NCBI GenBank assembly: GCA_036377595.1
Contig: DASUYB010000002.1
Location: 1-35,042, forward strand
Direction: 5' to 3'
DNA: 35,042 nt
DNA from: Longimicrobium sp.
GTDB taxonomy: Bacteria > Gemmatimonadota > Gemmatimonadetes > Longimicrobiales > Longimicrobiaceae
Below are positions 1,543 through 35,042 of the stretch, piece after piece (within the stretch, counting starts at the first letter, position 1; each line of letters starts with the position of its first letter). Both the position numbers and the translations under genes were made by a program. The notes below the pieces were generated by a model. It did no database searches, was not told where the DNA came from, and worked only from the letters and a program-made list of their open reading frames with translations.

Positions 1543-1546
<4 letters not shown>
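1499..1546 (+). CDS. possible 15-residue coupling ORF between two NRPS genes
   Basis: This tiny reading frame starts at the ATG that overlaps the upstream NRPS stop (ATGA at 1499-1502). It ends in a TGA that overlaps the ATG of the next NRPS (ATGA at 1543-1546). The peptide would be MTDQPFTAMNCPQSR. Two four-base overlaps in a row would let ribosomes step from one synthetase gene to the next. It could equally be chance in a 40-nt spacer. No function is claimed for the peptide. Confidence 0.2.
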
Positions 1547-8199
<6,653 letters not shown>

Positions 8200-8232
8200 C
8201 GCCACCTTGCCCGTACACCGCTTCCCAGGCAC

Positions 8233-16419: not shown

Positions 16420-16441
16420 CGGAAGGGCCAGCCGGATTGAC

Positions 16442-16666
16442 TGTGGATTGGGGAAGGAACAGGCATGTCATTCCGAAGGCGCTGCGCCGCCCCGTCCTCC
16501 ATGCCAAAGCCGTGGCGCCTGAGGAATCTGTGGCCGGCGCCCGCGCCACAGGCCGCCTTTCGCCCGGACGCATGCCACAGATTCCTCGGGCGCCGCCCGA
16601 AATCAGCGCGATTGAAGATTCGGAGCAGCGGCGCCGACTCGGAATGACATTCGATCGGAATCCACA
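16442..16666. repeat. long nested inverted repeat after the NRPS operon
   Basis: Three pairs of arms nest around one centre. TGTGGATT (16442-16449) pairs with AATCCACA (16659-16666). TGTCATTCCGA (16466-16476) pairs with TCGGAATGACA (16639-16649). GAGGAATCTGTGGC (16521-16534) pairs with GCCACAGATTCCTC (16574-16587). The motifs TGTCATTCCGA and GAGGAATCT belong to a kind of dispersed intergenic palindrome known from several bacterial phyla. It fills most of the gap between the NRPS stop and the next gene. It could end or attenuate NRPS transcription. It also keeps the downstream frame open upstream of the true start, so it is not evidence of coding. Confidence 0.85.
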
Positions 16667-16766
16667 ATCGATTGCGGCAGCCGGTATCACACGTCAACGG
16701 AATCAACGAACGCGCCGTGGCTCAACGCGCGCGCTTCTCCATCACCCCCCTCCCGGACCCCCGCCC

Positions 16767-18155
16767 GTGATCGCCTCCGCCCTGCGGATCCCCCCCGACA
16801 CCCGGGCCGCGCACCGCCAGCTTTCCCCCGCCGCCGAGCGCTTTCTGGACCACCTGCTGGATCACCCCGACCAGGCGGCGCAGCTGGCGGGGTTCGAAAA
16901 GGGGCTGCCGGACTGGATGATCCCCCACGACATCACCTGGCCCACGCTGGTCGACGCACGGCGGGTGGCCGAGATGGAGCGGGCAACGGTGGGCGTGTGC
17001 AGGCTCGTCAGGGCCATTCCCGCGGTGGTGTTCGGCGGAGACCTGGGAGCCATCGCCACGTTCTACGACTACGATCCCCTCCTGCTGGCGATCATGTTCT
17101 CGGTGCGCAATTACACGAACAGCACCGTGGCCCGCTGCGACTTCATCGACACCCCCGGCGGGCTGATGTGCTGCGAGGTGAACATGGCCGCCAACCTGGG
17201 CGGCTGGCATCACGGGTTCTGGCGTGAGCGCTACCTGCGGCACCCCGTGCTCATGGACTTCTGCGCGCGCGAAGGCATCAGCCCGGGCGGCCACGACGTG
17301 CTGGTCACCTTCTGCGAGCACGTGATCGACGACGCCCTGGACAGCGGCGTGATCGAGGAAGGCGGCGAGCTGAATGCGGTGCTGGTCCTGAACGAGCCCA
17401 CCGAGGATGCGCGGCGCGACGCCGCCGAAGTGTACGCGGAGCTCCTCCGCCGCACCGGGCGCGGCGTGACCGGCCAGCTGTGGCTGTGCAGCTGGCCGGC
17501 GGAGGAGCTGACGTTCCGGGGGCTGGACGTGTACATGGGCGAGCGGCGGGTGCACGTCTTCTACGGGTTCGCCCAGGTGTCCCCTCCCCTGCAGGTGCTG
17601 CGCTCGCAGCTGGTGGGCCGGATACGCTTCTACGGCGGGCTTGCGCGGATGTGGGTCGACAAGCGCAACCTCGCCCTGCTTTCGGAGAACGAGGGGCTGG
17701 AGGCGTGGACCGATGAGGACCGCGAGCTGATCCGCGACCACATCCCCTGGACGCGCCTGGTCTCCCCCCGCACCACCACCTGGCGCGGGGCCGAGGTGCA
17801 GTTTCCCGGCTTTCTGCTGGATCGCCGCGACGACATGGTCCTCAAGCGCAGCCTGGGCTCGGGCGGCGCGGCCGTGCACGTGGGGCGGTACCTGGCGCCG
17901 GACGCCTGGGAGGCGCGGGTGCGCGAGGCGGTGGAGGAGGGAACCTGGATCGTGCAGGAGCGGGTGGAGTCCAGGCCGTACTTCTATCCGCCCCGCCCCG
18001 GCGCCGCCCCCGTTCCCCACACCGTCGTCTGGGGCCTGTTCTGCACCGGGCCGCGGTACGCCGGCGGCTGCCTGCGCATGCTTCCCCAGGGCGTCGGCGA
18101 GGGCATCGTCAACGGCGCCCGCGGCGCCTACGAAGGCGCCATCCTGGAGATCTGA
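16767..18155 (+). CDS. probable circularly permuted ATP-grasp ligase
   Basis: A 462-residue protein without a signal peptide. About residues 355-395 carry an ATP-grasp nucleotide-binding signature: a lysine on a strand followed by a glycine-rich loop (MVLKRSLGSGGAAVHVG), then TWIVQERVES. The order of elements recalls circularly permuted ATP-grasp proteins (VLKP...GGKGV...VVQER), which join a carboxylate to an amine through an acyl phosphate. The upstream half has many charged and aromatic motifs (FYDYDPLLLAIMFSVRNYTN, CCEVNMAANLGGW). GTG 16767 is chosen because it follows the inverted repeat and precedes the first protein-like segment; no clear ribosome site is seen, so the start is uncertain. 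It lies downstream of the NRPS on the same strand, so it may add an amide-linked group to the peptide (inference). The exact substrate and subfamily are unknown. Confidence 0.75.
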   Translation: MIASALRIPPDTRAAHRQLSPAAERFLDHLLDHPDQAAQLAGFEKGLPDWMIPHDITWPTLVDARRVAEMERATVGVCRLVRAIPAVVFGGDLGAIATFYDYDPLLLAIMFSVRNYTNSTVARCDFIDTPGGLMCCEVNMAANLGGWHHGFWRERYLRHPVLMDFCAREGISPGGHDVLVTFCEHVIDDALDSGVIEEGGELNAVLVLNEPTEDARRDAAEVYAELLRRTGRGVTGQLWLCSWPAEELTFRGLDVYMGERRVHVFYGFAQVSPPLQVLRSQLVGRIRFYGGLARMWVDKRNLALLSENEGLEAWTDEDRELIRDHIPWTRLVSPRTTTWRGAEVQFPGFLLDRRDDMVLKRSLGSGGAAVHVGRYLAPDAWEARVREAVEEGTWIVQERVESRPYFYPPRPGAAPVPHTVVWGLFCTGPRYAGGCLRMLPQGVGEGIVNGARGAYEGAILEI

Positions 18156-18177
18156 TCCCAAATTCCGAGGTTTCAGT

Positions 18178-18314
18178 GTGCATTCCGATATCTCAAAAGA
18201 ATGACTCACACGGAGGAAACGGAGGTAACGGAGGAACTAAACGCGAGCAGAGTTCCTCCGTTTCCTCCGTTCCCTCCGTGTGAGATTCTTCAGTTCAGGA
18301 ACATGGGAATGCAC
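18178..18314. repeat. hairpin of 9-nt CGGAGGAAA-like units with outer arms
   Basis: The inner arms (18205-18238 and 18251-18284) are built from reiterated CGGAGGAAA/CGGAGGTAA units and their complements, opening with CTCACACGGAGG and closing with CCTCCGTGTGAG. The outer arms GTGCATTCC (18178-18186) and GGAATGCAC (18306-18314), with AGAAT/ATTCT in between, extend the symmetry. It starts 23 bp after the ATP-grasp stop, so it may end transcription in either direction. There is no U-tract, so this is not a classic intrinsic terminator. Confidence 0.85.
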
Positions 18315-18555
18315 GGTAAATCCTGAGAAACGGTATGATCGCGTATCCGCCGGGACCGACGGGGATCGAGCGCGCCGTGTCGCCCTCGGAGCGCCGCGGG
18401 CACGGGGCGGTCGCGGACGGAAAGCACCGCGCGCCGGGGGTGAGCTTCACCCTGGAGACGGGGTGAAGGCCGTGGGCGCCCGGCCCGGGTTTCGCCGGCA
18501 CATCATCGCGGGCCCGGACAGGCTCCGGGACCTCACCCGAGAGAAGGTCACACGG
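18315..18555 (+). other. leader before the S51 peptidase gene; no gene recognised
   Basis: The reading frame of the next gene stays open upstream through this stretch, but the translation (Arg/Gly/Ala-rich) is not protein-like. A TATGAT at 18334-18339 is the best -10-like hexamer, without a convincing -35 partner. Nothing else is recognised. Confidence 0.3.
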
Positions 18556-19290
18556 ATGTCGATCGATCCGGAGGAGTTCGCCGTCCCGTTTTCCGGCGCG
18601 CCCGTCTACCTGCTGGCCGACAGCCAGCTCCTCTTCTCGTCGCCCGGGGGGCGCGCGCTGCTGGCCCCGGCCGTGGACGCCATCGGGAGCGCAGGGCCGC
18701 GCGCGGCCTACGTGGGCGCCGCCAACGGCGACCGGCCCGAGTACTACTCGATCTTCGAGGGCGCCATGGAGATGATCGGCGTGCGTGACCGGCGCATGAT
18801 CCTCTCCGGCTACTCCGCCCGGGACCGCGCGTACCTCCGCTCCGCCGACCTCATCGTCCTGGCCGGCGGCGACGTGGGCGCCGGGCTGCGCGTGCTGCGG
18901 GAGACGGGGATGGACGACGACCTCGACGAGCGGCGCCGGGAGGGCGCGGTGCTGGTCGGCGTCTCGGCCGGGGCGGTGCACCTGGGCGCAATGGGCTGGC
19001 TCGGCGGCGAGCCCGCCGACGGCGAGCTGGTGGGCACGCTGGGGATCGTTCCCTTCTCGGTGGACGCGCACGACGAGGCCAACGGATGGCGCCGCCTCCG
19101 GCAGCTCGTGGCCCGCTCGCTCCCCGGCAGCGTCGGCATCGGCGTGCCCACCGGCGGCGGGGTCATCCACCACCCCGACGGCGCCGTGGAGCCGGTGGGG
19201 CGCGGCGCCGTGGAGCTCCGCCTGGACGACGGCCGGATCGTCGAGTCGATCCTGTACCCGCCCGATCGTTCGCCGCCGCCGGCGGAGTGA
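18556..19290 (+). CDS. peptidase S51 / cyanophycinase-like protein
   Basis: A 244-residue cytoplasmic protein. The motif GVSAGAVHLG (Ser137) matches the nucleophile elbow of peptidase family S51, which includes dipeptidase E and cyanophycinase and has a class I glutamine amidotransferase-like fold. LIVLAGGDVGAGL (about 99-111) matches the preceding glycine-rich strand of that family. VDAHDE (about 170) may supply the histidine. Such enzymes cut Asp-X dipeptides or related isopeptide bonds; the substrate here is unknown. ATG 18556 is chosen because the conserved fold starts right after it (PVYLLADSQLLF) and the upstream extension is not protein-like; the ribosome site is weak. It lies between the ATP-grasp gene and the exporter, so it may process or detoxify the peptide, for example by reversing the ligase product (inference). 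Confidence 0.8.
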   Translation: MSIDPEEFAVPFSGAPVYLLADSQLLFSSPGGRALLAPAVDAIGSAGPRAAYVGAANGDRPEYYSIFEGAMEMIGVRDRRMILSGYSARDRAYLRSADLIVLAGGDVGAGLRVLRETGMDDDLDERRREGAVLVGVSAGAVHLGAMGWLGGEPADGELVGTLGIVPFSVDAHDEANGWRRLRQLVARSLPGSVGIGVPTGGGVIHHPDGAVEPVGRGAVELRLDDGRIVESILYPPDRSPPPAE

Positions 19291-21820: not shown

Positions 21821-22135
21821 CCCCTGGTATTCGTTCCGAACAACACTGAGCCACGCCGGGCGAGGTACGCCGTGGGTTGCATAGATCCGGTCCAACCCCT
21901 GCACCAGTTCTAGTGCCGCAGCTACCCGCATCCCCGGCGGAATCGAAGCTAGTACCTGCTCGATCAGATAGACGGCAACGTCCGGCGTGAGGCCGTCGCC
22001 ACCGGCGGCCCACTGGCGCAGGTACCAGTCTCGCAGCTTGCTGAGGGTCGTTCCGTAGAGGCGACGCGTTTTGCCGGATACGATGTTCGCGATTCCGCCG
22101 TGGCTGACGCCCGAAGCATTGGCGACCGTCGTCCG
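21821..22135 (-). pseudogene. XRE-family regulator, C-terminal remnant
   Basis: Read on the minus strand from about 22135 down, the translation is protein-like without a start codon at its beginning. It contains ASGVSHGGIANIVSGKTR, a helix-turn-helix of the Cro/C1 (XRE) type, then LYGTTLSKLRDWYLRQ and a helical tail ending near RNEYQG. The N terminus is missing: beyond about 22135 the DNA instead reads as relaxase on the other strand. The first ATG (21931) lies after the helix-turn-helix, so no DNA-binding protein can be made. The junction marks a deletion or insertion that fused this gene to the relaxase remnant. Confidence 0.6.
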
Positions 22136-24074
22136 CGACGTGGACGGCGGGCTGCGCGTGCCCGCCGAGCACGAGACGGGGTTGCAGCGAGTCTACCCAC
22201 CCTCGAACCCGCGTCGCGGAGACGCCGAGTTCCTGCGTGAGGTCACGGCACGCGCCGCCCCGGTACTGGAGCAGGCGCAGTCCTGGGCCGAGTTGGAGCG
22301 CGGACTTGCCGAGCAAGGGCTGGCGCTGCGCGTGAAAGGCGGCGGGTTTACGCTGACGGACGGGACCCGACAGGTGAAGGCATCGGAGGTCGGGCGCGAA
22401 TGCTCGCGTTACCATCTGGAGAAGCGCTTGGGCGCGTATCCCGACTACCGGACACGCATGGCCGTCGCGCAGATCGCACCGGCGCCTCGCGCCCCCGTCG
22501 TCCAGCCGCAGGTCGCGCCACCTCGGGAATCGGCTACGGTTGAAGTGCAGACTCCCGCACGGCAGGAGCCGCCGGGTCCCGCGCTTCCTCCTGCAACGCA
22601 GGTCCCGCCTCGCGTGGAGGGTCGCGTTCCCGAGCGGCACAAGCCGCAGTTCGGAGACGCGGGACACGGCATCGTCGAGCTGTTCGACGGTCCGCCACCG
22701 CCCGAGGCCGAGGGCCCTGCCCACGCCGTGGAGCGCGCTCCCACACCGCAGCCCCAGCGGAAGGAACGCACCTTCCTGCACGAGGTGCAGGAGCGCGCCG
22801 GGCCGGTACTGGAGGGGGCCGACACCTGGGCGGAGCTGGAGCGCGGCCTTGCGGACCACGGACTGTCCCTGCGCGAGAAGGGGGGCGGTTTCGTGGTGAC
22901 GGACGGAGAGCAGGAGGTGAAGGCGTCCGAGGTAGGGCGGGCCTTCTCGCGCTTCCATCTGGAGAAGCGGCTGGGCCAGTATCCGTCCTCCCGCGCGCGG
23001 GGAGTGGTGGAGGAGGTCCAGCCAGCCCCGCCCGCCCCCGCCGTGGAGCCGGATCCCGCCGAAAGGCAGGTCGAACAGCTCGCGCTCCCCCTTCCCACGC
23101 CTGCCGTCCAGGAAGGAGCGGGGACGCCTGCGCGCCCCACGCAGCGCTTCACGCTGTACGACGACGGGACCGTCTTCGGGGTGCGGGACAGGGATGGACA
23201 GATCTTCTTCGCCGAGACGCGCGAGCGTGCCGTCGCCGAGGTGGAGCGCGCCAACGCCATCGCCGCGCTCTACCCGGCCGTGATCTCTATGCGCCACCTC
23301 CGCGAGATGGACGGCGCATGGAGGGATGCGCGCGGACTGCCGCGCCTGCCCGAGCCGGAGGGACGCCGGATCGTGGTCGCGGCCCCGGAAGGACTCGGGG
23401 ACGCCGTGCCCCCGCTCCCGCCCGTTGCACGCGTGCAACGCGAAGAATCAACTCCGGCCGCGGCTTCCCCGGAACGCGCTGCCGCGCCCCCGCCGGAGCG
23501 AGCGCCGGCGCCCACAGTTGAGCTGCCGGTTCAGCCCGAGCCGTCGCGGCCGGCGGAGCCCCCGATCCGCACACCCGCGCGCGGGTCGGAGCCGCCGGTG
23601 CCGGCCAGGAAGAGAACGGTTCCACGCACGGAGCGCGAAGACGCGCCAATCCAACCGGCAGCTCCCGCTCCGCCCGCACCTGCTCTGCCTCATGGCGCAC
23701 GCGCTCGTGATGCCGGAGTCCCCGAGTTGCCTCCGGAAATCGACGCGTATCTTCGCGTTCTCACCGAGGCCGCCGAAGCGCTGGACCTCCTGGATCAGCG
23801 CCAGAAGGCCGGGGAGGAATTCCACGCTGCAGCGGACGAACTCGCGTGGCTACCGGAGCGGCGAAAGCGGGCCGACGCGGCCGTCGAGGGATACAGGTCC
23901 GAGCTGCGCGAAGTGTACGCTGACCCCGCCGCCGCCGAGAAGGCGATTGCGGCGCATCGGAAACAGTACGGCACCGACGCAACCGCCGATGCCATTGAGC
24001 GGTCTCCCGAACGCTTCGGTGCGCTGCGACCGGACCCCGACCAAGGGCATGATCTCTCGCCTGTGGCGGCGTGA
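22083..24074 (+). pseudogene. relaxase (MobA/VirD2-like) C-terminal remnant
   Basis: This open frame of about 660 residues lacks the N-terminal nickase domain of a mobilisation relaxase. It keeps the accessory C-terminal part. A module of about 75 residues occurs twice (about 22227-22448 and 22770-22995), each with APVLEQAQSWAELERGLAEQ or GPVLEGADTWAELERGLADH, then KASEVGR and HLEKRLG. Next come a segment beginning FTLYDDGTVFGVRDRDGQIF, a Pro/Ala-rich linker (about 23400-23700) and a tail with the relaxase-like pattern LREVYADPAAAEKAI and PERFGALR. The first residues after ATG 22083 (or TTG 22071) come from DNA antisense to the XRE remnant, so this start is probably accidental. In an intact element the protein would nick oriT and lead DNA transfer; here it cannot. 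It could still be translated. Confidence 0.65.
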
Positions 24075-24682: not shown

Positions 24683-27600
24683 CTATCGATCCCTGATCCA
24701 AGCCCATTCCTCGTTGCTGAGGTTGATGGGCAATCGGGCCGACGCAGCCTCAAAGAGCCCTTTGAACGTTGCGTAGTACTGACGCGCGGACCCATCGGAA
24801 CTCGCGGTGAGGATCTTCCGGCCATCCAAGCTGAACTCTGCGTGTTGAACGTAACTGGTGTGTCCACGCAACACAGAGAGCGTCTGGCCGGTCTGGGCAT
24901 CCCAGAGACGGGCTGTGCCATCGACACTGGCAGTGACGACAAATTGGCCATCCGGACTGAATCTCGCCGTAGTAACGTTCGCATCGTGACCGCGAAATGT
25001 GACAAGCACTCGTCCTGTTTCCGCGTCGAATACACGCGCCAGTCGTCCCTCTTGAGTGACGAGAATGTGATCGCCCGATGGGCTCCAATCGATTTGAAAC
25101 TCTTCGGGATGGAGTCCCTCGATCTGCGATAGCTTGCCCCTTGTCCCCTCGACGTCCCACACACTCACAACACCATTTCCTACCAGTGCGACCTTCCGCG
25201 CATCCGGACTGAATATAGGATTTCCAAGGTCAGCCACTCGGAACTCTCGGAGCAACCGGCCATAGCGTGCATCAAAGACGTTGACGGTCTCATTTCCGCA
25301 AATCGCCACGATTCGTGTCCCGTCGAGACTGAATCTGGGAGTGTTAATTTCTTTGCCGGCACACTTGAATGTTGACTTCACGCCACGCGTTTCTAGATCG
25401 ATCTTCCGAACGATTCCGCCATCATCAACCAAGATCGAGGTGCCATCCGGGCTGAAAGAGTTCCCATCGACACCCCATCGGCCTCCGTCCAGTCCGGGTA
25501 CAGGTGCGAATGGCTCTGTCGACCATACAGCCGCTCGCACTCCGTCGCTAAATTGTTGGCGCACGAGAATGAATCGACCGTTTGGAGCAAAGTAGACTTC
25601 GTTGAACGTGTTTGTTCTATTGGGACCGGGTCTCAGTTTGGCCTGGGCAATGAGCGCTCCGTCGGCGCTCCACAGGCGAAGAACGCCATCGAAATCGATC
25701 CCGATGATTTTTGAACCATCAGGACTGAATGAGGCGCCGACGATATCGGATGTGCCACCTCGCAATACTGGCAACTCGGACTCGAAGTCCGATGCCCACA
25801 GTCGGGCTGTGCCCCGCTCGGCGCTGATGGCAATCAGCTCACCGTCGGGGCTGTAAGATACATTATTCCATCCAAGGCTGTTTTCGAAGAAACGCGTTAA
25901 GGTGCCTGAGACGAGCCCATCGAGTGCATTCCACACGATCGCTGCTTGATCTGTTGCGATGACAACCTGTTGGCCATCGGGGCGAACGCTCATGCTTTGA
26001 AATGCACCCTGCAGAGGCAGCACAGCGAGTTGGGCGCCGGTCGTGACATTCCACACTTTGGCGCCGCGGTATCCACCTGTGACCAAGAGCCGCCCGTCTT
26101 GACTGAACATGGTGCTGTAGGCCCACCCTTCACCGGCCTCACGAAATGTATGAACATCGCGACCGTGAGTTGTGGACACGAGGTGCACTACGCCATCACG
26201 AGCTGCCCCAGCAAACATGCTGTTGTCGGGGCTGAATGACATGCTGTATACGCAGCAGACCACGTCACGCAGTCGAGCAACAACGTGACCGTCGCTGATC
26301 CGCCAGAGAGTTATTCCGTCGGGTGATAGAGTCGCCAACTTCTCGCCATCGGGACTGAATGTGATGGTGGCATAGCCAACCCGCGGAAGCGACCGAACCA
26401 GCATGCCGGTGGCCGAATCCCACAGACGCACAATCCCGTCCTCTCCAATGGTCGCAACCCGGGCATCATCCGGGGCGAACACAAAATCCCGAAGATATCC
26501 GTTCGCCACCGGCCACTCACGCAGCACCGCGAGCGACGCAATGTCCAAGAGTCGTAGTCGACCATCGTCGGTCGGCACAGCCATAACCTGACCTTTGTGA
26601 TCCAGCGCTACTCTTGACAGGTTACGCTCGCTCGGCAGAAGCGAGTGCACCTGCCGTCCCGTCTTCACATCCCAGATCTTGCCACCCCCATCGCCGAGTG
26701 TGATCGCGAAGCGGCCATCGGGCGTAAACAGCACTCCGCTGAGGCCTGCCATCCTCTGATCGCCATGGCGGAGAATGACTTTGACATACGGCGCTCGCAG
26801 CGCCCGTCTCAGCGCATCCCACACAGGAGGGGTCTGTGCAGTTCGACCGGCCTCGACGGCATACATCAAACCGCGCAACGCGTCTCCGCGTCCTTCAAGA
26901 GTCCTTGCAGCTTGATCAGCGAGATCTTGCGCTCGAGTGATCCTCATTCGTTCTCTAGCCACAAGCGACTGCTGCGCGGCGACCAGGAAACCGACGACTG
27001 CAACGACAGCCAACAAAATGACTGCCTGTATGCGCCTCTTGTCACGCAGGCGCCGGGTCCTCTCGTCCCTAGCGTCCTGATCTTCTTGATCGCGACTCGC
27101 CACGAGAAACGCCGACTGATCAGCATTCACGTCGCCACGATATTGTTCCGCCCATGCCTCCGCCTGGGACAGACGAGCACCTCGGTACAACTGATGCGGG
27201 TCGCGTTCAGTGGCGAGCCACTCAGTGGCGGCCTGATGCACCCGACGCTCTATCAAGATGGCCTCCCGATCTTCATCTAGCCAAGCTTGTAGGAGCGGCC
27301 AGTTTCGGATCAGGGCTTCGTGGGCAACTTCGATAACATCGTGCTCTACCTGCCAACGACCGAGCGATAGGCTGTGCGTGGCTTGGGGTGCGAGCGTTGG
27401 GGCTTGAGTAACAACGAGGAGCCGCTCGGCGAGCAGCGTATTCAGCACCTGTTCAGCCAATTGCCTGTCTGTGCCGAGTTGCAGGATGGCATCCTTCGGA
27501 ATTCGGCGACGAGTTTCCACCGTCGCTACGCCCACATGTGTCAGGCGGACGAGCAGTTTTCGGGCGAACAGTTGACCCTCTGGGCTCAGACCTCTGAATA

Positions 27601-28918
27601 CTGCATCGGCATGGTTCTTCAGAGCACCGCCGACGCCGCCGATGTCTCCATATGCACGGTGCGTGAGAGAAGAGCCATCACGGCGCTCCCACAACTGGAG
27701 GAGTGCATGTCCAAGCATCGGTAGTCCCCCTGGCTCGTCGACCACGTCGCGCAGAATTCTGTCAACGAGTCCGCTTTCAAACGTCAGGCTAGATGCCTTG
27801 GATGGCTTCTCGACAACATCCCGCAATTGTTGTTGTCCAGGGCGTGCGAGCACCACCTGATGCTGCGATACCCACTCAACCAGTTCCTCGTATTCGAGGC
27901 AATGAGGATAGAAGTCACTCCGAAGGCACAGGAGCAGTCGGACGCCATACGGGCCGCGACTCCTCGCTGCAGTGACAAGTGAAGTGATAAATGCCAGTCG
28001 GCTTTCACGTGTCTTGCTGAGAGTGAACAGCTCTTCGAATTGATCGACCACGATTAGCGTGTGCCTGTCGTGAGGGGCCGACAGCATCGCCAAGCAATTC
28101 GCAAGGCCTTCTGGGCCCACCTTCAGCGACAGCTCACATTGATCCCTCAGCTTGAGCTTTTCAGACGGTGAAAGGTCTGATTCGAGATCCGGAAGAGCGT
28201 TGGCCATCTCGGCGAATGGACTCTCGCCAGGCCTACAGATAGCCACCCGCCAGCCGTGAACCCATTTGCCGTCGGAGTAGAAGCGTCCACGCTGCAGTGC
28301 CGGAACCACACCTGCGTGAATCAACGAGGTCTTTCCAGATCCAGAGTCACCAATGACGGCAACTACTGAGCTGTCCTGCAAGGCGTTTAGAGTCGAGTGC
28401 ACCTCTGCATCACGCCCAAAGTACAACGCGCCGTCCTCCGCCGAGAACGGTAGCAACCCTAAGAAAGGACAGCGCTGCGAGACTGCCTCGGGCGCGATTG
28501 GTATTGCAGGACCCTGAAGTTCCGCCACCAGAGTCCGAATCGCGTTGTCAGCCTGGGCCGGTGCCCTGAGATCGACCCACTGATGCTGTTGCAAGAATGC
28601 CGGTAGCAAATCCGGCTTCGCGCCATGACCAAGGACCGGGTAGATCCTGAAGCTCGGATCCTTCGCGTTCCGATCGATCGCCAGACGCAGTTCTCGGTCG
28701 ACCCAACCGGAAATGCCGTTGGTACCAATGTAGATGACGAAACTTGATGATCTAACGAGTGCAGCTTCGAGCTCCGACGCCCAGAGCTTCCCAGGCTTCA
28801 AATCGTCAACGTCAAGCCAGACTTTTATCCCGGAAGCGCGAAGGGTGCGAGCGAGCGTTCGCGCGGACTCGGCTTCAAGACCCTCGTGACTTAGGAACAC
28901 GTGCGAGGTGTCGCCCAT
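24683..28918 (-). CDS. TIR-STAND ATPase-WD40 protein, putative defence
   Basis: A 1411-residue multidomain protein. Residues 1-135 form a TIR domain (HVFLSHEG, then DVDDLKPGKLW, then WVDREL with Glu76 in the place of the NADase glutamate). About 150-600 is a STAND ATPase of the nSTAND1 type: CPFLGLLPFS, Walker A GDSGSGKTS (from 190), Walker B TLIVVDQFEE (about 287-296), and the typical VAHEALIRNWPLLQAWL near 531. A hydrophobic segment (630-648, AVILLAVVAVVGFLV) follows. The rest to about 1395 is WD40 propellers with repeated FSPDG and GTARLWD units. Known relatives sense a trigger through the repeats, oligomerise with ATP, and fire the TIR to destroy NAD. The role here, antiphage defence with cell suicide, is inferred. 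ATG 28918 is preferred over GTG 28930; neither has a clear ribosome site. Base composition is clearly less GC-rich than the NRPS genes, which suggests transfer. Confidence 0.9.
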   Translation of the reverse strand: MGDTSHVFLSHEGLEAESARTLARTLRASGIKVWLDVDDLKPGKLWASELEAALVRSSSFVIYIGTNGISGWVDRELRLAIDRNAKDPSFRIYPVLGHGAKPDLLPAFLQQHQWVDLRAPAQADNAIRTLVAELQGPAIPIAPEAVSQRCPFLGLLPFSAEDGALYFGRDAEVHSTLNALQDSSVVAVIGDSGSGKTSLIHAGVVPALQRGRFYSDGKWVHGWRVAICRPGESPFAEMANALPDLESDLSPSEKLKLRDQCELSLKVGPEGLANCLAMLSAPHDRHTLIVVDQFEELFTLSKTRESRLAFITSLVTAARSRGPYGVRLLLCLRSDFYPHCLEYEELVEWVSQHQVVLARPGQQQLRDVVEKPSKASSLTFESGLVDRILRDVVDEPGGLPMLGHALLQLWERRDGSSLTHRAYGDIGGVGGALKNHADAVFRGLSPEGQLFARKLLVRLTHVGVATVETRRRIPKDAILQLGTDRQLAEQVLNTLLAERLLVVTQAPTLAPQATHSLSLGRWQVEHDVIEVAHEALIRNWPLLQAWLDEDREAILIERRVHQAATEWLATERDPHQLYRGARLSQAEAWAEQYRGDVNADQSAFLVASRDQEDQDARDERTRRLRDKRRIQAVILLAVVAVVGFLVAAQQSLVARERMRITRAQDLADQAARTLEGRGDALRGLMYAVEAGRTAQTPPVWDALRRALRAPYVKVILRHGDQRMAGLSGVLFTPDGRFAITLGDGGGKIWDVKTGRQVHSLLPSERNLSRVALDHKGQVMAVPTDDGRLRLLDIASLAVLREWPVANGYLRDFVFAPDDARVATIGEDGIVRLWDSATGMLVRSLPRVGYATITFSPDGEKLATLSPDGITLWRISDGHVVARLRDVVCCVYSMSFSPDNSMFAGAARDGVVHLVSTTHGRDVHTFREAGEGWAYSTMFSQDGRLLVTGGYRGAKVWNVTTGAQLAVLPLQGAFQSMSVRPDGQQVVIATDQAAIVWNALDGLVSGTLTRFFENSLGWNNVSYSPDGELIAISAERGTARLWASDFESELPVLRGGTSDIVGASFSPDGSKIIGIDFDGVLRLWSADGALIAQAKLRPGPNRTNTFNEVYFAPNGRFILVRQQFSDGVRAAVWSTEPFAPVPGLDGGRWGVDGNSFSPDGTSILVDDGGIVRKIDLETRGVKSTFKCAGKEINTPRFSLDGTRIVAICGNETVNVFDARYGRLLREFRVADLGNPIFSPDARKVALVGNGVVSVWDVEGTRGKLSQIEGLHPEEFQIDWSPSGDHILVTQEGRLARVFDAETGRVLVTFRGHDANVTTARFSPDGQFVVTASVDGTARLWDAQTGQTLSVLRGHTSYVQHAEFSLDGRKILTASSDGSARQYYATFKGLFEAASARLPINLSNEEWAWIRDR

Positions 28919-29040
28919 CGCCGTGATCACGGCGCAACGGCCCAGATCAAGGAGGTGAGCACCAACGAAGCTGTGTGGGCGATGGTCATGGACTGGGGCT
29001 CATCAGTGGTGGAGGCTGTCTAACGCATGTTGAGAGCACG

Positions 29041-29361: not shown

Positions 29362-29784
29362 ATGTCACGCTGCTTCAACCGCGCCACCCTGATCGGCTAC
29401 CTGGGCGCCGATCCCGAGATCCGGACGCTCCCCGGCGGCGGCCGGGTCGCGCATGTCGCGCTGGCGACCACACGCCGCTGGAACGATCGCGACGGGAAGC
29501 TGCGGGAGAAGACCCAGTGGCACCGCATCACCGTGTGGGACAGCCTGCCCAGCACCTTCAACTTCGTGGAGACGTACGTCCGGAAGGGCGACCGCGTCTT
29601 CGTGGAGGGCGAGATCGACTACCGCTCCTACGAGGACCGCGACGGCGTCGTGCGCTGGTCGACCGAGATCCGCGCGTCCGAGGTGCTCGCCGCAGGGGAG
29701 CTCAGCGGCGGCGAGGGCAAGCGCGCGGCCGGCAAGCCGTCCGCACGCAGCGAGTCGGGTGCCGTCCAGATGTCGGCGCTGTGA
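29362..29784 (+). CDS. ssb: single-stranded DNA-binding protein, mobile-element type
   Basis: A 140-residue SSB with one OB fold over about residues 4-110. The family start FNRATLIGYLGADPEIR is followed by GGGRVAHVALATTRRW, then TQWHRITVWD, KGDRVFVEGEIDYRSYEDRDG and TEIRASEV. It binds single-stranded DNA as a tetramer. The C-terminal tail is short and ends AVQMSAL; the acidic DDDIPF-like tip that recruits replication and repair proteins in housekeeping SSBs is missing. GGAGAG stands about 9 bp before ATG 29362, a good ribosome site. The nuclease gene follows after 7 bp, so the two form an operon. Housekeeping SSBs usually sit elsewhere; this one belongs to the inserted element (inference). 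Confidence 0.92.
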   Translation: MSRCFNRATLIGYLGADPEIRTLPGGGRVAHVALATTRRWNDRDGKLREKTQWHRITVWDSLPSTFNFVETYVRKGDRVFVEGEIDYRSYEDRDGVVRWSTEIRASEVLAAGELSGGEGKRAAGKPSARSESGAVQMSAL

Positions 29785-29791
29785 GGTACCG

Positions 29792-30736
29792 ATGATCAAC
29801 ATCTCGATGTATCCCGACTTCAGCTGGTCCCACTCGCGGGATCGCGCCCTGATGGAGTGCGCTCGCGCCTACTACTGGCGCTACTACGGCAGCCACAACG
29901 GGTGGCAGTCCGATGCTCCCGAGAGCACCCGGCTCGCGTACGCCCTCAAGCAGCTCACCACGTTCCCGATGATCGTGGGCACCGAGGTGCACGCATGCGC
30001 CCGCGACTACGCCCTGGCTGTCCAGCAGGGGAGCACGCGGCCGACCTTCGACGTGATGCTCGCGCGCGTTTCCGACGCAATCAACCGCGCGGTGCTCGGC
30101 TCTCACCACCGCGGGGCATTCCTCCGCGATCCGAAGCGCGTGGTGATGCTGCAGGACGCGTGGCACTCCGGCCGCAACGAAGCCGCTGGCTTGGCGCCGG
30201 CGCTGACGAAGGCCCGGCTCTGCCTGCGCAACCTGGAGCGCGCGGAGCTGTGGGAGGAGCTGGAGCAGTGCCGCCCCGAGTGGGTGATCGCTCCCGAAGG
30301 CCCGGAGGCGTTCGTTCACGAGGGGTGGCCCGTCTATGCCGGTCCCGACCTGGTCTATCACCCCGACGGCAAGCGCGTTGTGATCCTCGACTGGAAGACG
30401 GGGGACGCTAGCGACGCCGAGTTGCAGATCCCGCTCTACGCGCTCTACTGCCGAACCGTCCTCGGGATTCCGTACCGGGATGGCGAGTGGTTCGGCCGCG
30501 TAATCAACTTGGCCACGGGAGCAGACACGGGGCAGGAGATCACGAAGCTCGACCTGATGCAGGCCGCGGAGCGCGTCCGGCAGAGCGTGGGCGCCATGCA
30601 CGCGCTGCTGGCGGACGTCGATACCAACCAGCCTCGCGCGATGGAGGCGTTCCCCGTCGCCGAGCCGGAGCGGCGACGGTCCTGCCAGTACTGCCCGTTC
30701 TTCACCCTCTGCGAATCGGAGTTGGCCCAGGTGTGA
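29792..30736 (+). CDS. PD-(D/E)XK nuclease with Fe-S cysteines (Cas4/AddB-like)
   Basis: A 314-residue protein of the RecB/Cas4-like nuclease superfamily. Visible motifs are GTEVHACARDY (motif I histidine), GPDLVYHPDG (metal-binding aspartate), ILDWKTGD (D-x-K catalytic motif) and QIPLYALY (the Q-x-x-x-Y helix). Cys23 near the N terminus and Cys298, Cys301 and Cys307 at the C terminus (CQYCPFFTLC) match the four-cysteine iron-sulphur staple of Cas4 and AddB. Such enzymes cut single strands or DNA ends. GAGGT stands before ATG 29792, and the gene follows ssb by 7 bp, so the SSB may present its substrate. No helicase, RecT or Cas1 partner is in the window, so this is not a CRISPR Cas4. The specific role is unknown. 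Confidence 0.85.
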   Translation: MINISMYPDFSWSHSRDRALMECARAYYWRYYGSHNGWQSDAPESTRLAYALKQLTTFPMIVGTEVHACARDYALAVQQGSTRPTFDVMLARVSDAINRAVLGSHHRGAFLRDPKRVVMLQDAWHSGRNEAAGLAPALTKARLCLRNLERAELWEELEQCRPEWVIAPEGPEAFVHEGWPVYAGPDLVYHPDGKRVVILDWKTGDASDAELQIPLYALYCRTVLGIPYRDGEWFGRVINLATGADTGQEITKLDLMQAAERVRQSVGAMHALLADVDTNQPRAMEAFPVAEPERRRSCQYCPFFTLCESELAQV

Positions 30737-30810: not shown

Positions 30811-33800
30811 TCAAACGACGGGCCTTCTATCGAATTCACCCGGCATCGGTGGATCTACGTCCCAATCCTCTTCGTTCGCCCTCTGTCCGATCAACGTCCA
30901 GACATCCTTCTCGAAAGGCATCGTCCCCAAGGCCGCCGGATCGGAGGGGGGAAGCTCGGGCTCCGCCTCACCTAACGCCTGCAGGACAGCACGGCAGCGC
31001 GCAAGCTCCCACCAGCGCGCATGTGGTGGTCCATCCGACCAGGCCCAGCGGTAACCTTTCAGGGCGTGGTCTCGCGCCCCCGCCGGATCGCGGAGGATGA
31101 GATAGGTCTCTGCGAGGGAGACATACGGCGGCTGCGCACTGTCCTGGAGCCGATCGCAGATTTCGATCGCACCTTCGATGTCGCCGGTCCTTGCCTTCGC
31201 GAAGGCGAGCCGCGCTTCGAGCCCGGCGACCGGTATCCCGCCTGCCTGGGTGAGCTCGATGGCTTGCTCGAAAGCGGTGGCCGCCAGAAGTGCATCCCCG
31301 CGTCGGAGCGTTAGCTCACCGCGAATGCTAAGCAGATCTCTCATTGATGCCTTGTTGTTGCCTTGTCGCGCAACGGCCTCTGCTTCCGTTAACTCGATGT
31401 CTGTCAGCATATTTTGACGAAATCTCAACCAGCACAGCACTCGCTCAGCCTCACCAGGCCGGTAGATCGCTCGCAGCCGTGGTGTCGGGAGCCTCAAGTA
31501 CTCATTATGGGCAACCTCGGCCTCAGCAACCATGCCTGTCAGGTCGTAGTACTCGATCAGCTTCAGGTACGTGCAGGAGGTACAGGCGTCTCTCCGTTCG
31601 TCCTTTAAACCAGATTGGAACCTCTTCGCGATAGAAAGGGCAAGTTTTATTGCAGAGAACATCGAGGCGATATGATTCTCAGCGCAAAAGCTCGCTGCGA
31701 GCCCCAAGAGATCCACCCACACGCTATATATGTCCGCTCGTTTAAGGTCGATCCTGAGTGCGGCAAGATAGCTCTCGTGCGCGTCTGAGAATTGGCCGAT
31801 CTGGAACAACGAATTCGCCACGTCGGTCAATAGGAACGATTGAAAGTGTGATTCAGCCGGGGAATGCGTGAACCCGCGTGGAAATAGAGGCTGGAGTATC
31901 AACAGTACGTCGAGGGGCGCCTCGACACACAGGAGAGCCTGCGCGAAATCCCCAATATAGAATTTCACGGCGGCCGAATGTCGTTGCGCCTGAATGAGCG
32001 CCCGGAACACATCGACACTCTGCTGGAGATCGGCGACAGTTCTGGCTTCGCTGAATTGGTCAGGAGGCCTGCTTTGGAAATGATCGATAATGCGGTTGCA
32101 GATGGCGGCTCGATCAGTGTCCTCCAAGATATCGAATGCATAGCCGCGGACGACCGGATGGAGATCGTAGCTGTTCTTTTTCCGGTCCCACTGCAGCAAG
32201 CCACGCCTCTCCAAGTCGTGCAGCGCCGAGACGAGTTTCGGCAGATACTCCCGGAGTTCTTCAGGCCCCCAGAACGCCGGTGCGGCGCGGTCGTGGGCGA
32301 CTTCAGCATCATCTTCATCAGCCGCAGGCTCGCCAGCGGCTTCTGGAAGGGGAGGGAGAAAGGGATTCAGAGCTACGACCGTTTCGAATGGGACCGCGTG
32401 GGAAAAAGCGGCAATTCGATTGAGGAGCTGTCGCACGCCGGGCTCAAGGCCGGTCAGCGCCGCCGCAAGGATGTGCGTCCGGCGCTGCACGAGATCGAGT
32501 CTGGACAGGTGGAGAGAGGCACCACCCTGCGGATCCCCGACCCAGCGGTCGAAATTGCCGGGGTCGTGGACGTAGTCGTTAACCAGACCTGCCGTGATGC
32601 CGATGAGGAGCGGGTGGTTGTCGAAGTGCCTCGTTAGGTAGCGGCGGATCGCTTGGTCACCGCTCCGTATACCGAGATCGCGCATCATCGTGAGCGCGTC
32701 GTCCGGGTGCATGCCGACGAGTCGGTGGTGCATCACGCCGGGAAGCGGTTGACCCGCCTTATTGGTGAGCGTCGATGGCATCAGGCGGGAGGTAACGAGC
32801 ACCTTGGACGGCGAGGCCGCAACGAGCTGGCGCAAGAGGTCCGCGTCTGAAGGCTTAGTGCAGGCGCGATGGTCGACGTCCGAACGCACCTGGTCGTCTC
32901 GTAACTGGGAAGCATCGAGCCGGTGGTACGCGACTAGCACTCGCTCGAATCCGTCGAGCACTAGCAGGAATGGCTCCTCCTTCAACGCGTTCAAGAGCAG
33001 GACGGCGAGCTCAGTGGTTTTCTTCCCGCGGATTTTATGGAACTGGAGTCCCTTGGTGTACGCCAGTGCGTACGCAGCGAACTCCGCCATGTCTGCGCCG
33101 CCTTCGTAAAAGCTGTACCACAATACGCCGGCCAAGTCGGGGCGGACCACGCGCGCCTGCTCCTGGGTCCATCGCCAGGCCAACGAGCTCTTTCCCATAC
33201 CACCGATCGCCTCAACCACCATCATCGGCTGTTCGCTCGCTGCCCAGTCGTCAAGCAGGCTCAACTCCGCGTGTCGGCCGACGAACTCGTGACCCGAGAC
33301 GAAGTTAGGAATCGCCAAAGGCTTGGGAGGCGAGGGAAGCCCTCGCTTTTCCGCGACCTGCCGGGTGGTTCGTGCCTTCTCTTCCTGCGTCTCCACGGCC
33401 ACAAGGCTGCTCCGGAACTCGGCCATTGACTGCAGCACGAGACTCTTGAGGCTCTCCACAGACGAGAACTGGGCTGTAATCGAACGCGCCTGCGCGTCTT
33501 CCCGAAGCGCATGCAGCTTGGCCCGGTAGGCTTCTACCGTCTCGACGTTGCCCAACTGCGTTGGATGGTCGTCGCTCATCAAGAACATATAGACGGGGAT
33601 GCCACGGCCGAGTGCACGCCGGTATTCCAACTCGGTAATGGAAAGCTGATTCGGATTTCGCCGTGAATCGCGAGGGACACCACCGTAGCGGTGGCTTACA
33701 ATCCCCACATAGGCGTATGCCCGGTCAACCTTCTCGTAAGATGATGCAATGACATCCTTTTGTGCGATTGCGGAGTCGAACTCCATCCCGATCGGGTAGA

Positions 33801-33912
33801 AGCCGAGACGAAGCAGTGCATCGACAACGGCTTTGCGGTGCTCGATCAGGTCCTGAAAAGTGCCGCTGACAATAACATCAGGGTGATCGGGCACATTGTT
33901 GGGCTTCTCCAT
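30811..33912 (-). CDS. DUF4062-STAND ATPase-TPR protein, putative defence
   Basis: A 1033-residue protein. Residues of about 11-110 match DUF4062 (VIVSGTFQDLIEHRKAVVDA, then MEFDSA, HRYGG and SITELEYRRAL). About 205-560 is an NB-ARC-like STAND ATPase: FVGRHAEL, Walker A GGMGKS (237-242) and Walker B LLVLDGFE (about 316-323). A winged-helix-like part follows (LLQWDRKKNSYDLHPVVRGY). From about 640 to 990 are helical repeats of the TPR type (for example GDALLAATAFEQAIELTQAG). DUF4062 often heads STAND proteins and lies where TIR effectors lie in relatives. An effector or adaptor role in antiphage defence is inference. ATG 33912 is chosen over an upstream ATG because GAGGGG stands 5-6 bp before it. 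It converges with the nuclease gene. Base composition is less GC-rich than the NRPS block. Confidence 0.85.
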   Translation of the reverse strand: MEKPNNVPDHPDVIVSGTFQDLIEHRKAVVDALLRLGFYPIGMEFDSAIAQKDVIASSYEKVDRAYAYVGIVSHRYGGVPRDSRRNPNQLSITELEYRRALGRGIPVYMFLMSDDHPTQLGNVETVEAYRAKLHALREDAQARSITAQFSSVESLKSLVLQSMAEFRSSLVAVETQEEKARTTRQVAEKRGLPSPPKPLAIPNFVSGHEFVGRHAELSLLDDWAASEQPMMVVEAIGGMGKSSLAWRWTQEQARVVRPDLAGVLWYSFYEGGADMAEFAAYALAYTKGLQFHKIRGKKTTELAVLLLNALKEEPFLLVLDGFERVLVAYHRLDASQLRDDQVRSDVDHRACTKPSDADLLRQLVAASPSKVLVTSRLMPSTLTNKAGQPLPGVMHHRLVGMHPDDALTMMRDLGIRSGDQAIRRYLTRHFDNHPLLIGITAGLVNDYVHDPGNFDRWVGDPQGGASLHLSRLDLVQRRTHILAAALTGLEPGVRQLLNRIAAFSHAVPFETVVALNPFLPPLPEAAGEPAADEDDAEVAHDRAAPAFWGPEELREYLPKLVSALHDLERRGLLQWDRKKNSYDLHPVVRGYAFDILEDTDRAAICNRIIDHFQSRPPDQFSEARTVADLQQSVDVFRALIQAQRHSAAVKFYIGDFAQALLCVEAPLDVLLILQPLFPRGFTHSPAESHFQSFLLTDVANSLFQIGQFSDAHESYLAALRIDLKRADIYSVWVDLLGLAASFCAENHIASMFSAIKLALSIAKRFQSGLKDERRDACTSCTYLKLIEYYDLTGMVAEAEVAHNEYLRLPTPRLRAIYRPGEAERVLCWLRFRQNMLTDIELTEAEAVARQGNNKASMRDLLSIRGELTLRRGDALLAATAFEQAIELTQAGGIPVAGLEARLAFAKARTGDIEGAIEICDRLQDSAQPPYVSLAETYLILRDPAGARDHALKGYRWAWSDGPPHARWWELARCRAVLQALGEAEPELPPSDPAALGTMPFEKDVWTLIGQRANEEDWDVDPPMPGEFDRRPVV

Positions 33913-33942
33913 CGTCACCCCTCGGTACAATGAATTTGTAGG

Positions 33943-33967: not shown

Positions 33968-34559
33968 ATTCTGTAGGATTTCTCCTCCCAATATTACGCT
34001 TTCAGCCGCGCCATCAGCTCCTGTCCACAATCGGAGGAAACGCCTTCTTGTACACGGTGCCACCCTTGATGACGGTCGACGCATAACGTAGAAGAAGCGC
34101 ACAATAATTCAAGAGAAGCGGATGTCGAAATCGGACCCATCCTTGCCGATAATCGAAACCGCAAGCGGGGACTTTCCGGTAGGAGCCGACGAGTTGGAAA
34201 CCTCTCTGGGGCCGCGCTCCCCTATCCCGCTGTCGCCCTCGACGTCGGCGGGAAATCGCCAGGGGTACACGACGGGGTGCCCGGCCGTCTTCGGTGACCA
34301 CCGGGGTGCGCCTCTCCACCAGCTCGCTCGCCGGCGTGCGGCGAGCGAGCCGTGGGAAGGTGCCGCGATCAACTGCGCCGACCTCCCCCCACGACCGTTT
34401 CCCATGCCCCCACCTTCTTCCAACCTCCGCACATAGGCCCGAACTGGAGCGGGCTGCGCCCGCAACCACGTGATCCGCGCGCGGCGGCCCCGCCGCAGAC
34501 CGAAGCGAGCGAGCCCGACGCCCCTGTCGCCAGTGGCGGGGTATCAGCAGGGACAGATC
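33968..34559. other. gap of about 600 bp; no convincing gene, possible gene fragments
   Basis: Open frames on both strands here are low-complexity and Arg/Pro-rich. The only protein-like piece is on the minus strand at about 34014-34085, ending STVIKGGTVYKKAFPPIVD before a stop. It recalls the C-terminal strands of amidohydrolases, but is too short to assign. The base composition changes from the moderately GC STAND gene to GC-rich DNA near 34200. The N-terminal part of the downstream integrase should lie here but is not recognisable. Confidence 0.3.
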
Positions 34560-34906
34560 GTTGACGTCCCTGTGTTGACCCGCCTCCATGAACGCGCGGC
34601 GGCGGCGCACGCCTCCTATCAGGTGATGCGTGACCTGTTCGAGGATCTGGAGAGGATTGCGGGCGTGGAGCACCGGCGCGGGCGCTCCTTCTACGGCCTG
34701 CGCAGGCAGGCAACCGACCTCGCGCCTGAGTTCGCGCAGGACGCGCGAGTCCTCAACAGCATTTCCGGCCACGCCGACAGCGCCACGCGCGAGCAGGTCT
34801 ATCAGGACAAGGAGAACGAGCGGGTGCGCGTCAAGCCGCGGAGGTACGGCGCTCCATGCGGCGCTACCTGCTGGAGGGAAAGGACGGCGAGCAGATCGCC
34901 GCCTGA
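34560..34906 (+). pseudogene. tyrosine recombinase/integrase, C-terminal fragment, frameshifted
   Basis: The translation from about 34560 is the catalytic C-terminal half of a phage-type integrase: LFEDLERIAGVEH, then FYGLRRQATDLAPEF (box arginine), VLNSISGHADSATREQVYQD (histidine and nucleophilic tyrosine). After VRVK (34835) one base is missing. Stepping back one base restores the tail AAEVRRSMRRYLLEGKDGEQ and a stop at 34904-34906. The N-terminal arm-binding and core-binding domains are not found upstream. The protein would be inactive. The stop is 2 bp from the right att-like repeat, the usual place for an integrase gene. Confidence 0.78.
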
Positions 34907-34908
34907 CC

Positions 34909-34933
34909 AAACCTATCCCACAATCTGTACCAC
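34909..34933 (+). repeat. att-like direct repeat, right copy
   Basis: A 25-bp sequence starting AAACCTATCCCA, matching the left copy at 21674-21698 at 22 of 25 positions (differences at positions 13, 16 and 21). It lies just after the integrase stop, so the 13.2 kb between the copies could be one integrated element. The motif could instead be a dispersed genomic repeat or an integrase arm site. Confidence 0.6.
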
Positions 34934-34945
34934 CCCGCCGGGACG

Positions 34946-35042
34946 ATGGAAGAGCCGCGGCCGGTGCGGGCGTCGGAGGGGCTCATAGTACCGGGGAAGC
35001 CGGGTAATGCCGGTGGAGGGAAGGAGCCCTGCTTCTGGGACG
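34946..35042 (+). CDS. N terminus of a possible group II intron-type reverse transcriptase (3' partial)
   Basis: Only 32 codons are visible. MEEPRPVRASEGLIVPGKPG followed by NAGGGKEPCFWD recalls the N-terminal signature of some group II intron maturases (a basic stretch, then GNAGG-K-P-F). A group II intron would normally have several hundred bases of structured RNA before this ORF. Here the integrase remnant stands only 40 bp upstream, so it could be a truncated intron, a group II-like free-standing reverse transcriptase, or a false resemblance. No ribosome site is clear. Confidence 0.4.
   Translation, partial: MEEPRPVRASEGLIVPGKPGNAGGGKEPCFWD

What the first reader, a model, noticed from the sequence alone, without database searches (positions are those of the whole stretch)
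24683..28918. TIR-STAND-WD40 protein with a membrane segment between ATPase and propeller
An N-terminal TIR with the NADase-type glutamate, an nSTAND1 ATPase, one transmembrane span and a long WD40 array make a complete sensor-effector machine in one chain. The membrane span would put the propellers on the other side of the membrane from TIR and ATPase, unusual for a phage-protein sensor unless the trigger is at the envelope.
Basis: partly seen in the sequence, partly recalled or inferred. Interest (0 to 1): 0.7.

Follow-up and report, generated by a model that had tools for sequence, protein, structure and literature searches.

The report
Membrane-spanning bacterial TIR-STAND-WD40 receptor
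A large bacterial protein that probably senses something outside the inner membrane with WD40 propellers and answers inside the cell with a TIR domain that looks able to destroy NAD; the membrane span holds up in every computed test but turns out to be the usual design of its ATPase family, not an oddity.

Summary
Observation confirmed. Window 24686-28918 (minus strand) encodes 1411 aa: TIR (7-130), nSTAND1 ATPase (151-574), one hydrophobic segment (630-648) and about 14 WD40 blades. E76 and K196 are numbered correctly; E76 is invariant in all 8 TIR-nSTAND1 proteins aligned. AlphaFold2 puts the hydrophobic segment inside one 77-residue helix (599-675).

Of 80 named nSTAND1 relatives, 74 have the segment 355-455 aa after Walker A (79 of 80 at a looser cut). 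Flanking charge favours the N side in 73 of 74, i.e. N-in, sensor out. NACHT/NB-ARC proteins of the same phylum lack it at that place (0 of 9). N-terminal outputs are swapped freely (kinase, HTH, caspase, TIR), so nSTAND1-TM-WD40 looks like a general transmembrane receptor chassis. Six plasmid-borne TIR-nSTAND1 proteins in three proteobacteria have the same span.

The gene lies on an AT-richer insert with conjugation/phage-type genes and a second STAND gene (DUF4062). Most likely: inner-membrane receptor, extracytoplasmic propellers, cytoplasmic STAND switch, TIR NADase suicide output. Ligand, location, NADase activity and anti-phage function are untested. New member of a known kind; the class-level topology is the interesting part.

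The parts
24686..28918 (-). whole coding sequence, 1411 aa (stop codon 24683-24685)
28529..28900 (-). TIR domain (residues 7-130), TIR_2; putative catalytic Glu76 at 28691-28693
   Evidence: Pfam E 1e-20; E76 aligned with the AbTIR glutamate, invariant in 8 of 8; TIR fold nearest SPARTA TIR Z 18.4
27197..28468 (-). nSTAND1 NTPase (residues 151-574); Walker A Lys196 at 28331-28333
   Evidence: Pfam E 6e-112; invariant G190, S192, G193, G195, K196 and D292, Q293, E295, E296 in 70 sequences
26894..27124 (-). single continuous helix (residues 599-675) joining ATPase module to sensor
   Evidence: AlphaFold2 models
26975..27031 (-). hydrophobic transmembrane segment (residues 630-648); preceded by an Arg/Lys-rich stretch
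   Evidence: KD 2.82 against 1.29 for the next best; N flank DARDERTRRLRDKRR, C flank RERMRITRAQDLADQ
24773..26785 (-). WD40 repeats, about 54 strands (roughly 14 blades), probably two seven-bladed propellers
   Evidence: Pfam, AlphaFold2 secondary structure, Foldseek 2ymu and Apaf-1; blade count is inferred from strand number

Best explanation
A single-pass inner-membrane receptor of the STAND type. The propellers lie outside the inner membrane (periplasm: the genome encodes Omp85 proteins, so the cell is diderm) and bind an unknown ligand. Binding is passed along the 77-residue membrane-crossing helix to the cytoplasmic nSTAND1 ATPase, which exchanges nucleotide and oligomerises, as Apaf-1 and plant TIR-NLRs do; the clustered TIR domains then cleave NAD+, killing or arresting the cell (abortive infection or a related conflict response). 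Shown by computation: domains, catalytic residues, hydrophobic helix, family-wide charge bias, composition of a foreign insert. Inferred: membrane insertion and topology, oligomerisation, NADase activity, ligand, biological role.
For: Domains and residues. Continuous helix through the span. Segment at the same place in 74 of 80 relatives at KD 1.9 or more; net charge higher on the N flank in 73 of 74, one tie; at the looser cut 78 of 79, one tie. Phylum control: nSTAND1 14 of 15 parsed loci, NACHT/NB-ARC 0 of 9 at that place. Domains N-terminal of the span are cytoplasmic kinds: of 76 scanned, Pkinase 31, HTH_31 20, caspase 9, GerE 9, TIR_2 8, BTAD 7. Cysteine: N part 0.46 %, propellers 0.23 %, but exactly two Cys in the last 75 residues in 51 of 62, as for a disulfide outside the cytoplasm. 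The one relative clearly without the segment, L019, has GAF-SpoIIE in place of the propellers. TIR close by structure to SPARTA, SARM1 and AbTir NADases. Whole TIR-NTPase model matches plant TIR-NLR RPP1 and Apaf-1. GC 55-62 % against 70-77 % for the NRPS and transporter flank.
Against: No membrane or topology experiment exists for it. P0001 itself lacks the tail Cys pair seen in relatives (its tail is; theirs). A first cysteine test that kept the tail was uninformative. Kyte-Doolittle values up to 1.83 occur in the neighbouring DUF4062-STAND protein, whose TPR part I take to be soluble, so the five cyanobacterial relatives at 1.54-1.85 are ambiguous. WD40 proteins may be Cys-poor anyway. The 80 relatives were ranked by similarity to residues 1-740, which includes the segment, so they are somewhat biased towards having it. 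Kinase and HTH outputs on the same chassis argue that the receptor need not be about phage.
Confidence: 0.6

Rival explanations
1. Same membrane topology, but not immunity: a receptor for an envelope, developmental or neighbour-derived signal, with TIR used for signalling or regulated death in a social bacterium.
For: The chassis carries Ser/Thr kinases (31 of 76) and DNA-binding HTH domains (HTH_31 20 and GerE 9 of 76) more often than TIR (8 of 76).
Against: TIR and caspase versions are suicide-type outputs; the gene is absent at E<=1e-30 from five same-genus genomes (only the best candidates per genome were scored), sits on an AT-richer insert beside a DUF4062-STAND gene, and relatives cluster on plasmids.
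Confidence: 0.2
2. Membrane-anchored but wholly cytoplasmic: the helix dips into the membrane or anchors the protein, and the propellers sense phage proteins in the cytoplasm like Avs or Apaf-1.
For: WD40 propellers are usually cytoplasmic (general knowledge); Apaf-1 propellers fold back on the ATPase (PMC13174449, passage).
Against: One uncharged span of 19 or more residues in a single straight helix suits a full crossing; strong N-side charge bias family-wide.
Confidence: 0.13
3. The hydrophobic helix is itself part of the effector, inserting into the membrane only on activation.
For: Membrane damage is a common suicide output (general knowledge).
Against: The segment is kept next to kinases and HTH outputs where no pore is needed, and is hydrophobic enough for constitutive insertion.
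Confidence: 0.04
4. The segment is a buried helix of a soluble fold.
For: None found.
Against: AlphaFold2 helix 599-675 is continuous through it; the positive N flank recurs across the relatives.
Confidence: 0.03

Closest known systems
nSTAND1 STAND NTPases (Pfam PF20703; named in PMC8195603, passages read)
   Same: Same ATPase family, E 6e-112; same position of the hydrophobic segment in nearly all relatives
   Different: Nothing structural; this one carries a TIR, as 8 of 76 scanned members do, itself included
Caspase-NACHT-WD40 proteins of bacteria (PMC3501461, passages read)
   Same: Effector-STAND-WD40 order; that survey also scored transmembrane helices with inside/outside labels
   Different: Caspase instead of TIR; the passages read do not describe a span between the NTPase and WD40 parts as a family rule
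DGR-diversified STAND sensors of Thiohalocapsa (PMC10907252, passages read)
   Same: STAND proteins, some with TIR, some predicted to have the sensor in the periplasm
   Different: C-type lectin sensors diversified by retroelements, not WD40
Swarozyc / DUF4062 and TEP1 (PMC13174449, abstract and passages read)
   Same: TIR-like NADase; TEP1 has NACHT and WD40 repeats
   Different: No membrane span is described in what I read; the DUF4062 gene here is the neighbour, not this protein
Plant TIR-NLR RPP1 and animal Apaf-1 (folds 7dfv, 3sfz)
   Same: TIR-NTPase order (RPP1) or NTPase-double propeller order (Apaf-1)
   Different: Both soluble (general knowledge); different STAND clades; sequence identity 12-14 % in the rows
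Plasmid TIR proteins WP_213234664, WP_213234667 (Caballeronia sp. NK8), QIO48704, QIO48709, QIO48711 (Rhizobium leguminosarum), WP_275598548 (Sinorhizobium sp. K101)
   Same: TIR-nSTAND1 with the same hydrophobic segment; 5 of 6 with WD40 matches
   Different: 26-32 % identical over residues 5-608 in the three listed; two and three copies near each other in Caballeronia and R. leguminosarum

Membership tests
nSTAND1 NTPases (PF20703) | profile match above curated cut-off with Walker A and Walker B | tested here: met
   375 bits against cut-off 27.1; K196, D292 invariant among 70
TIR NADases | TIR fold with the catalytic glutamate | tested here: met
   TIR_2 E 1e-20; E76 aligned with AbTIR Glu, 8 of 8; fold Z 14-18 with NADase TIRs
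TIR NADases | NAD+ cleavage | not testable with these tools
   needs enzyme assay
Single-pass transmembrane receptors, N-in | one hydrophobic span with positive cytoplasmic flank | tested here: met
   (prediction only)
Single-pass transmembrane receptors, N-in | experimental membrane location and topology | not testable with these tools
   needs fractionation and reporter fusions
Known anti-phage systems in PADLOC 2023, including Avs | match to a whole-protein model | tested here: not met
   only partial matches of the TIR part, best E 9e-12 to SAVED-TIR over residues 4-93
Bacterial NLR-like defence proteins | protection against phage | not testable with these tools
   no experiment
Apaf-1-like WD40 STANDs | NTPase followed by two propellers | tested here: met
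   (two propellers inferred from strand number); the membrane span is an addition

The most novel reading that the evidence does not exclude
nSTAND1 proteins as a whole are a large, so far undescribed class of transmembrane NLR-like receptors in bacteria: extracytoplasmic, often disulfide-capped WD40 double propellers, one membrane-crossing helix, a cytoplasmic STAND switch, and interchangeable outputs (kinase, DNA-binding, caspase, TIR). The TIR version would be an envelope-facing immune receptor that kills by NAD loss before phage DNA is expressed.
Probability: 0.45. Interest if true: 0.7.

Novelty: new member of a known kind. Interest (0 to 1): 0.42.

Why it matters
Bacterial STAND immune proteins studied so far are mostly thought of as cytoplasmic sensors of phage proteins. 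If nSTAND1 proteins expose their sensors outside the inner membrane, they would be a bacterial counterpart of cell-surface receptors built from NLR parts, could detect attack at adsorption or DNA entry, and could be tested directly with proteobacterial plasmid copies.

Tried and rejected
Buried-helix reading: rejected on the AlphaFold2 helix and family pattern. 'Unusual membrane span': rejected by the survey. Cysteine content of the whole C part against the N part: no difference (0.45 % each); only after the last 75 residues were treated apart did a signal appear, so this is a second look at the same data. I first counted six relatives as lacking the span; inspection showed five of them (L049, L057, L059, L063, L092) have a weaker segment (KD 1.54-1.85) at the same place. 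Sensor diverging faster than effector: paralogue pairs gave 26 % identity in the C part against 58-59 % in the TIR for two pairs, but the Caballeronia pair does not show it clearly (WD40 69 %, nSTAND1 66 %, TIR 89 %), so no general claim. Integrase at 34470-34988: Phage_integrase E 0.07, below cut-off. Organism of the window: not determined; no named record was found, and my guess of Gemmatimonadota comes from no call. Of 20 phylum nSTAND1 places one is the window's own and four (L112, L114, L115, L120) were not parsed by my Walker pattern; eight of the 15 parsed are the same places as L010-L017. The search scored only two candidates in each genome (six), so absences there are weak.

Literature: searches found two papers naming nSTAND1; in the passages read neither describes a family-wide span. 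The library lacks most subscription papers, so absence there is weak.
Full report
What is there. The open frame at 24683-28930 on the minus strand, read from the ATG at 28918, gives 1411 aa. Pfam finds TIR_2 at 7-130 (E 1e-20), nSTAND1 at 151-574 (E 6e-112) and WD40 families over the rest. In the phmmer alignment with AbTIR (8g83) and its relatives, E76 lies on the matching glutamate; that this is the catalytic residue is recalled. The protein is not in PADLOC as a system: only its TIR part matches, best E 9e-12.

Structure. AlphaFold2 on residues 1-760 with 69 relatives (mean pLDDT 88.4) gives a TIR, a STAND ATPase and then a single helix 599-675 that contains the hydrophobic stretch in its middle. 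A second model, residues 601-1411 with 38 relatives (mean pLDDT 82.7, pTM 0.79), repeats the helix and shows about 54 strands, roughly 14 blades by division, probably two propellers. Structure comparison places the TIR nearest SPARTA TIR-APAZ (8ifl, Z 18.4, rmsd 2.1 over 134 residues) and near SARM1 (Z up to 17.4) and AbTir (Z 15.8). The TIR-NTPase part matches plant RPP1 and Apaf-1, and the propellers match 2ymu and Apaf-1.

Is the span unusual? No. One scan of 84,980 named genomes with alignment A1 gave 80 nSTAND1 loci from Chloroflexi, Actinobacteria, Cyanobacteria, Planctomycetes, Proteobacteria and others. One frame of at least 900 aa per locus was examined; two shorter frames (L069, L080) were dropped. 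In 74 of 80 a segment of KD 1.9 or more lies after the ATPase, 355-455 residues from Walker A where a Walker A motif was found. Of the six others, five have a weaker one (1.54-1.85) at the same place, so 79 of 80 excluding L019; the linker peak is the hydrophobic maximum of the protein in 79 of 80. L019 (Pirellulaceae) carries TIR-nSTAND1 followed by GAF and SpoIIE; its linker value of 1.84 falls in what I read as the start of the GAF domain. Because the 80 were ranked against a query that includes the segment, I also took nSTAND1 loci of the window's own phylum found by the Pfam model alone: 19 of 298 genomes; 14 of the 15 parsed loci have the segment, 4 were not parsed. As a control, NACHT and NB-ARC proteins of the same phylum: of 9 examined, one (L142) has segments of 1.9 or more, far C-terminal, and none has one at the nSTAND1 place; one NB-ARC hit, L135, was not examined.

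Topology. Among the 74, the 15 residues on the N side of the span have the higher net charge in 73, with one tie (means +3.9 and +0.05); with the looser cut 78 of 79 and one tie. By the positive-inside rule (general knowledge) TIR and ATPase are cytoplasmic and the propellers outside. What precedes the span fits: in 76 N-terminal regions scanned, Pkinase 31, HTH_31 20, caspase 9, GerE 9, TIR_2 8, BTAD 7 (one protein can match several). What follows is mostly WD40 (65 of 74 by my WD probe); eight of the other nine show WD40, TPR, FGE-sulfatase or pentapeptide matches, some weak. In 62 complete WD40 members with a strict span, the propellers hold half the cysteine of the N part (0.23 against 0.46 %), while 51 have exactly two Cys in the last 75 residues. 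A conserved pair suggests a disulfide, hence a place outside the cytoplasm; but the window protein lacks the pair (its tail, the relatives), and the comparison was made after a first version had shown nothing. The genome encodes Omp85 proteins (6 places), so 'outside' would be the periplasm.

TIR members. Seven of the 80 loci have the TIR by phmmer; in the eight-sequence alignment with the window protein E76, W72, D36 and the Walker residues are invariant. Six of those seven have the strict span. In PLSDB plasmids 163 records match residues 1-711 at E<=1e-20. Six TIR proteins on three plasmids were examined: two on Caballeronia sp. NK8 pNK84, three on Rhizobium leguminosarum pRL31b3, one on Sinorhizobium sp. 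K101 pK101b. All six match nSTAND1, five of six also WD40, and all have the segment (KD 1.93-2.50) after the ATPase. TIR_2 appeared for four of the six; for the two Caballeronia proteins only the best 25 families were printed and TIR_2 was not among them, the TIR there resting on the record annotation and, for one, on the tblastn match from residue 7.

Surroundings. GC falls from 70-77 % over the first 21 kb (NRPS-like and transporter genes) to 55-62 % over this gene and 58-62 % over the next STAND gene. The insert also holds a protein with two TraI_middle stretches (22071-24074), an SSB (29362-29784) and a PD-(D/E)XK nuclease of phage exonuclease type (29789-30736). The neighbour 30811-33930 is DUF4062 with a weak AAA/TPR part; a 2026 preprint (PMC13174449, abstract and passages read) reports DUF4062 as a TIR-like NADase with anti-phage activity. 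Its motif SITELEY supplies a candidate glutamate, residue 100. This is the only strong nSTAND1 protein of its genome, and none of five same-genus genomes has a match at E<=1e-30 (few candidates scored). Acquisition as cargo of a mobile element is the natural reading.

Mechanism, with likelihoods (my estimates). Membrane insertion about 0.92; N-in, propellers out about 0.85 given insertion; TIR acts on NAD about 0.75; the role is defence or regulated death about 0.65. The chain - ligand on the propellers, helix rearrangement, nucleotide exchange and oligomerisation, TIR clustering, NAD loss - is inferred from Apaf-1 and plant TIR-NLRs, not shown here.

Novelty. The protein is a new member of a known kind. 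Prior work read in passages: nSTAND1 named as a STAND clade (PMC8195603); caspase-NACHT-WD40 and transmembrane labels in caspase homologues (PMC3501461); STAND sensors predicted in the periplasm (PMC10907252); conflict systems with STAND and propeller parts (PMC7159879); prokaryotic WD40 survey (PMC5587647); propeller structures including PkwA (PMC6805158). I found no statement that nSTAND1 proteins are transmembrane receptors as a class in searches, made in a library without most subscription papers. That class-level reading is where the interest lies.

Noticed in passing
window 30811-33930 (-): DUF4062-STAND-TPR protein (1039 aa) with a SITELEY motif, beside the TIR gene; DUF4062 is reported as a TIR-like NADase (PMC13174449), so two putative NAD-depleting STAND proteins share one insert.
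   Followed up: partly
window 29362-30736 (+): SSB and PD-(D/E)XK exonuclease genes on the opposite strand between the two STAND genes; phage or conjugative type.
   Followed up: partly
window 22071-24074 (+): TraI/MobP-type protein with two TraI_middle stretches but no relaxase catalytic domain found: possibly a truncated relaxase.
   Followed up: no
window 34470-34988 (+): Looks like the end of a tyrosine integrase by eye, but Phage_integrase E is only 0.07.
   Followed up: partly
window 1543-19290 (+): Two giant ORFs of 2218 and 2728 aa that look like NRPS by eye (not scanned), then a 572-aa protein with no Pfam match at E 0.01 and an S51 peptidase-like protein.
   Followed up: no
L019:3516-6605: Pirellulaceae TIR-nSTAND1 joined to GAF and SpoIIE phosphatase, without the usual transmembrane span.
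   Followed up: partly
C-terminal 75 residues of L018-L097 proteins: Conserved cysteine pair in a tail motif (LT..E......C type) after the propellers; exactly two Cys in 51 of 62 complete WD40 members; missing in the window protein.
   Followed up: partly
L122, L125 (Caballeronia pNK84); L123, L126, L127 (R. leguminosarum pRL31b3): Two and three TIR-nSTAND1 proteins near each other on single plasmids, next to an annotated integrase or transposases.
   Followed up: partly
L139, L140 (G197 contig 34): Three NACHT proteins within about 14 kb in a relative of the same order.
   Followed up: no
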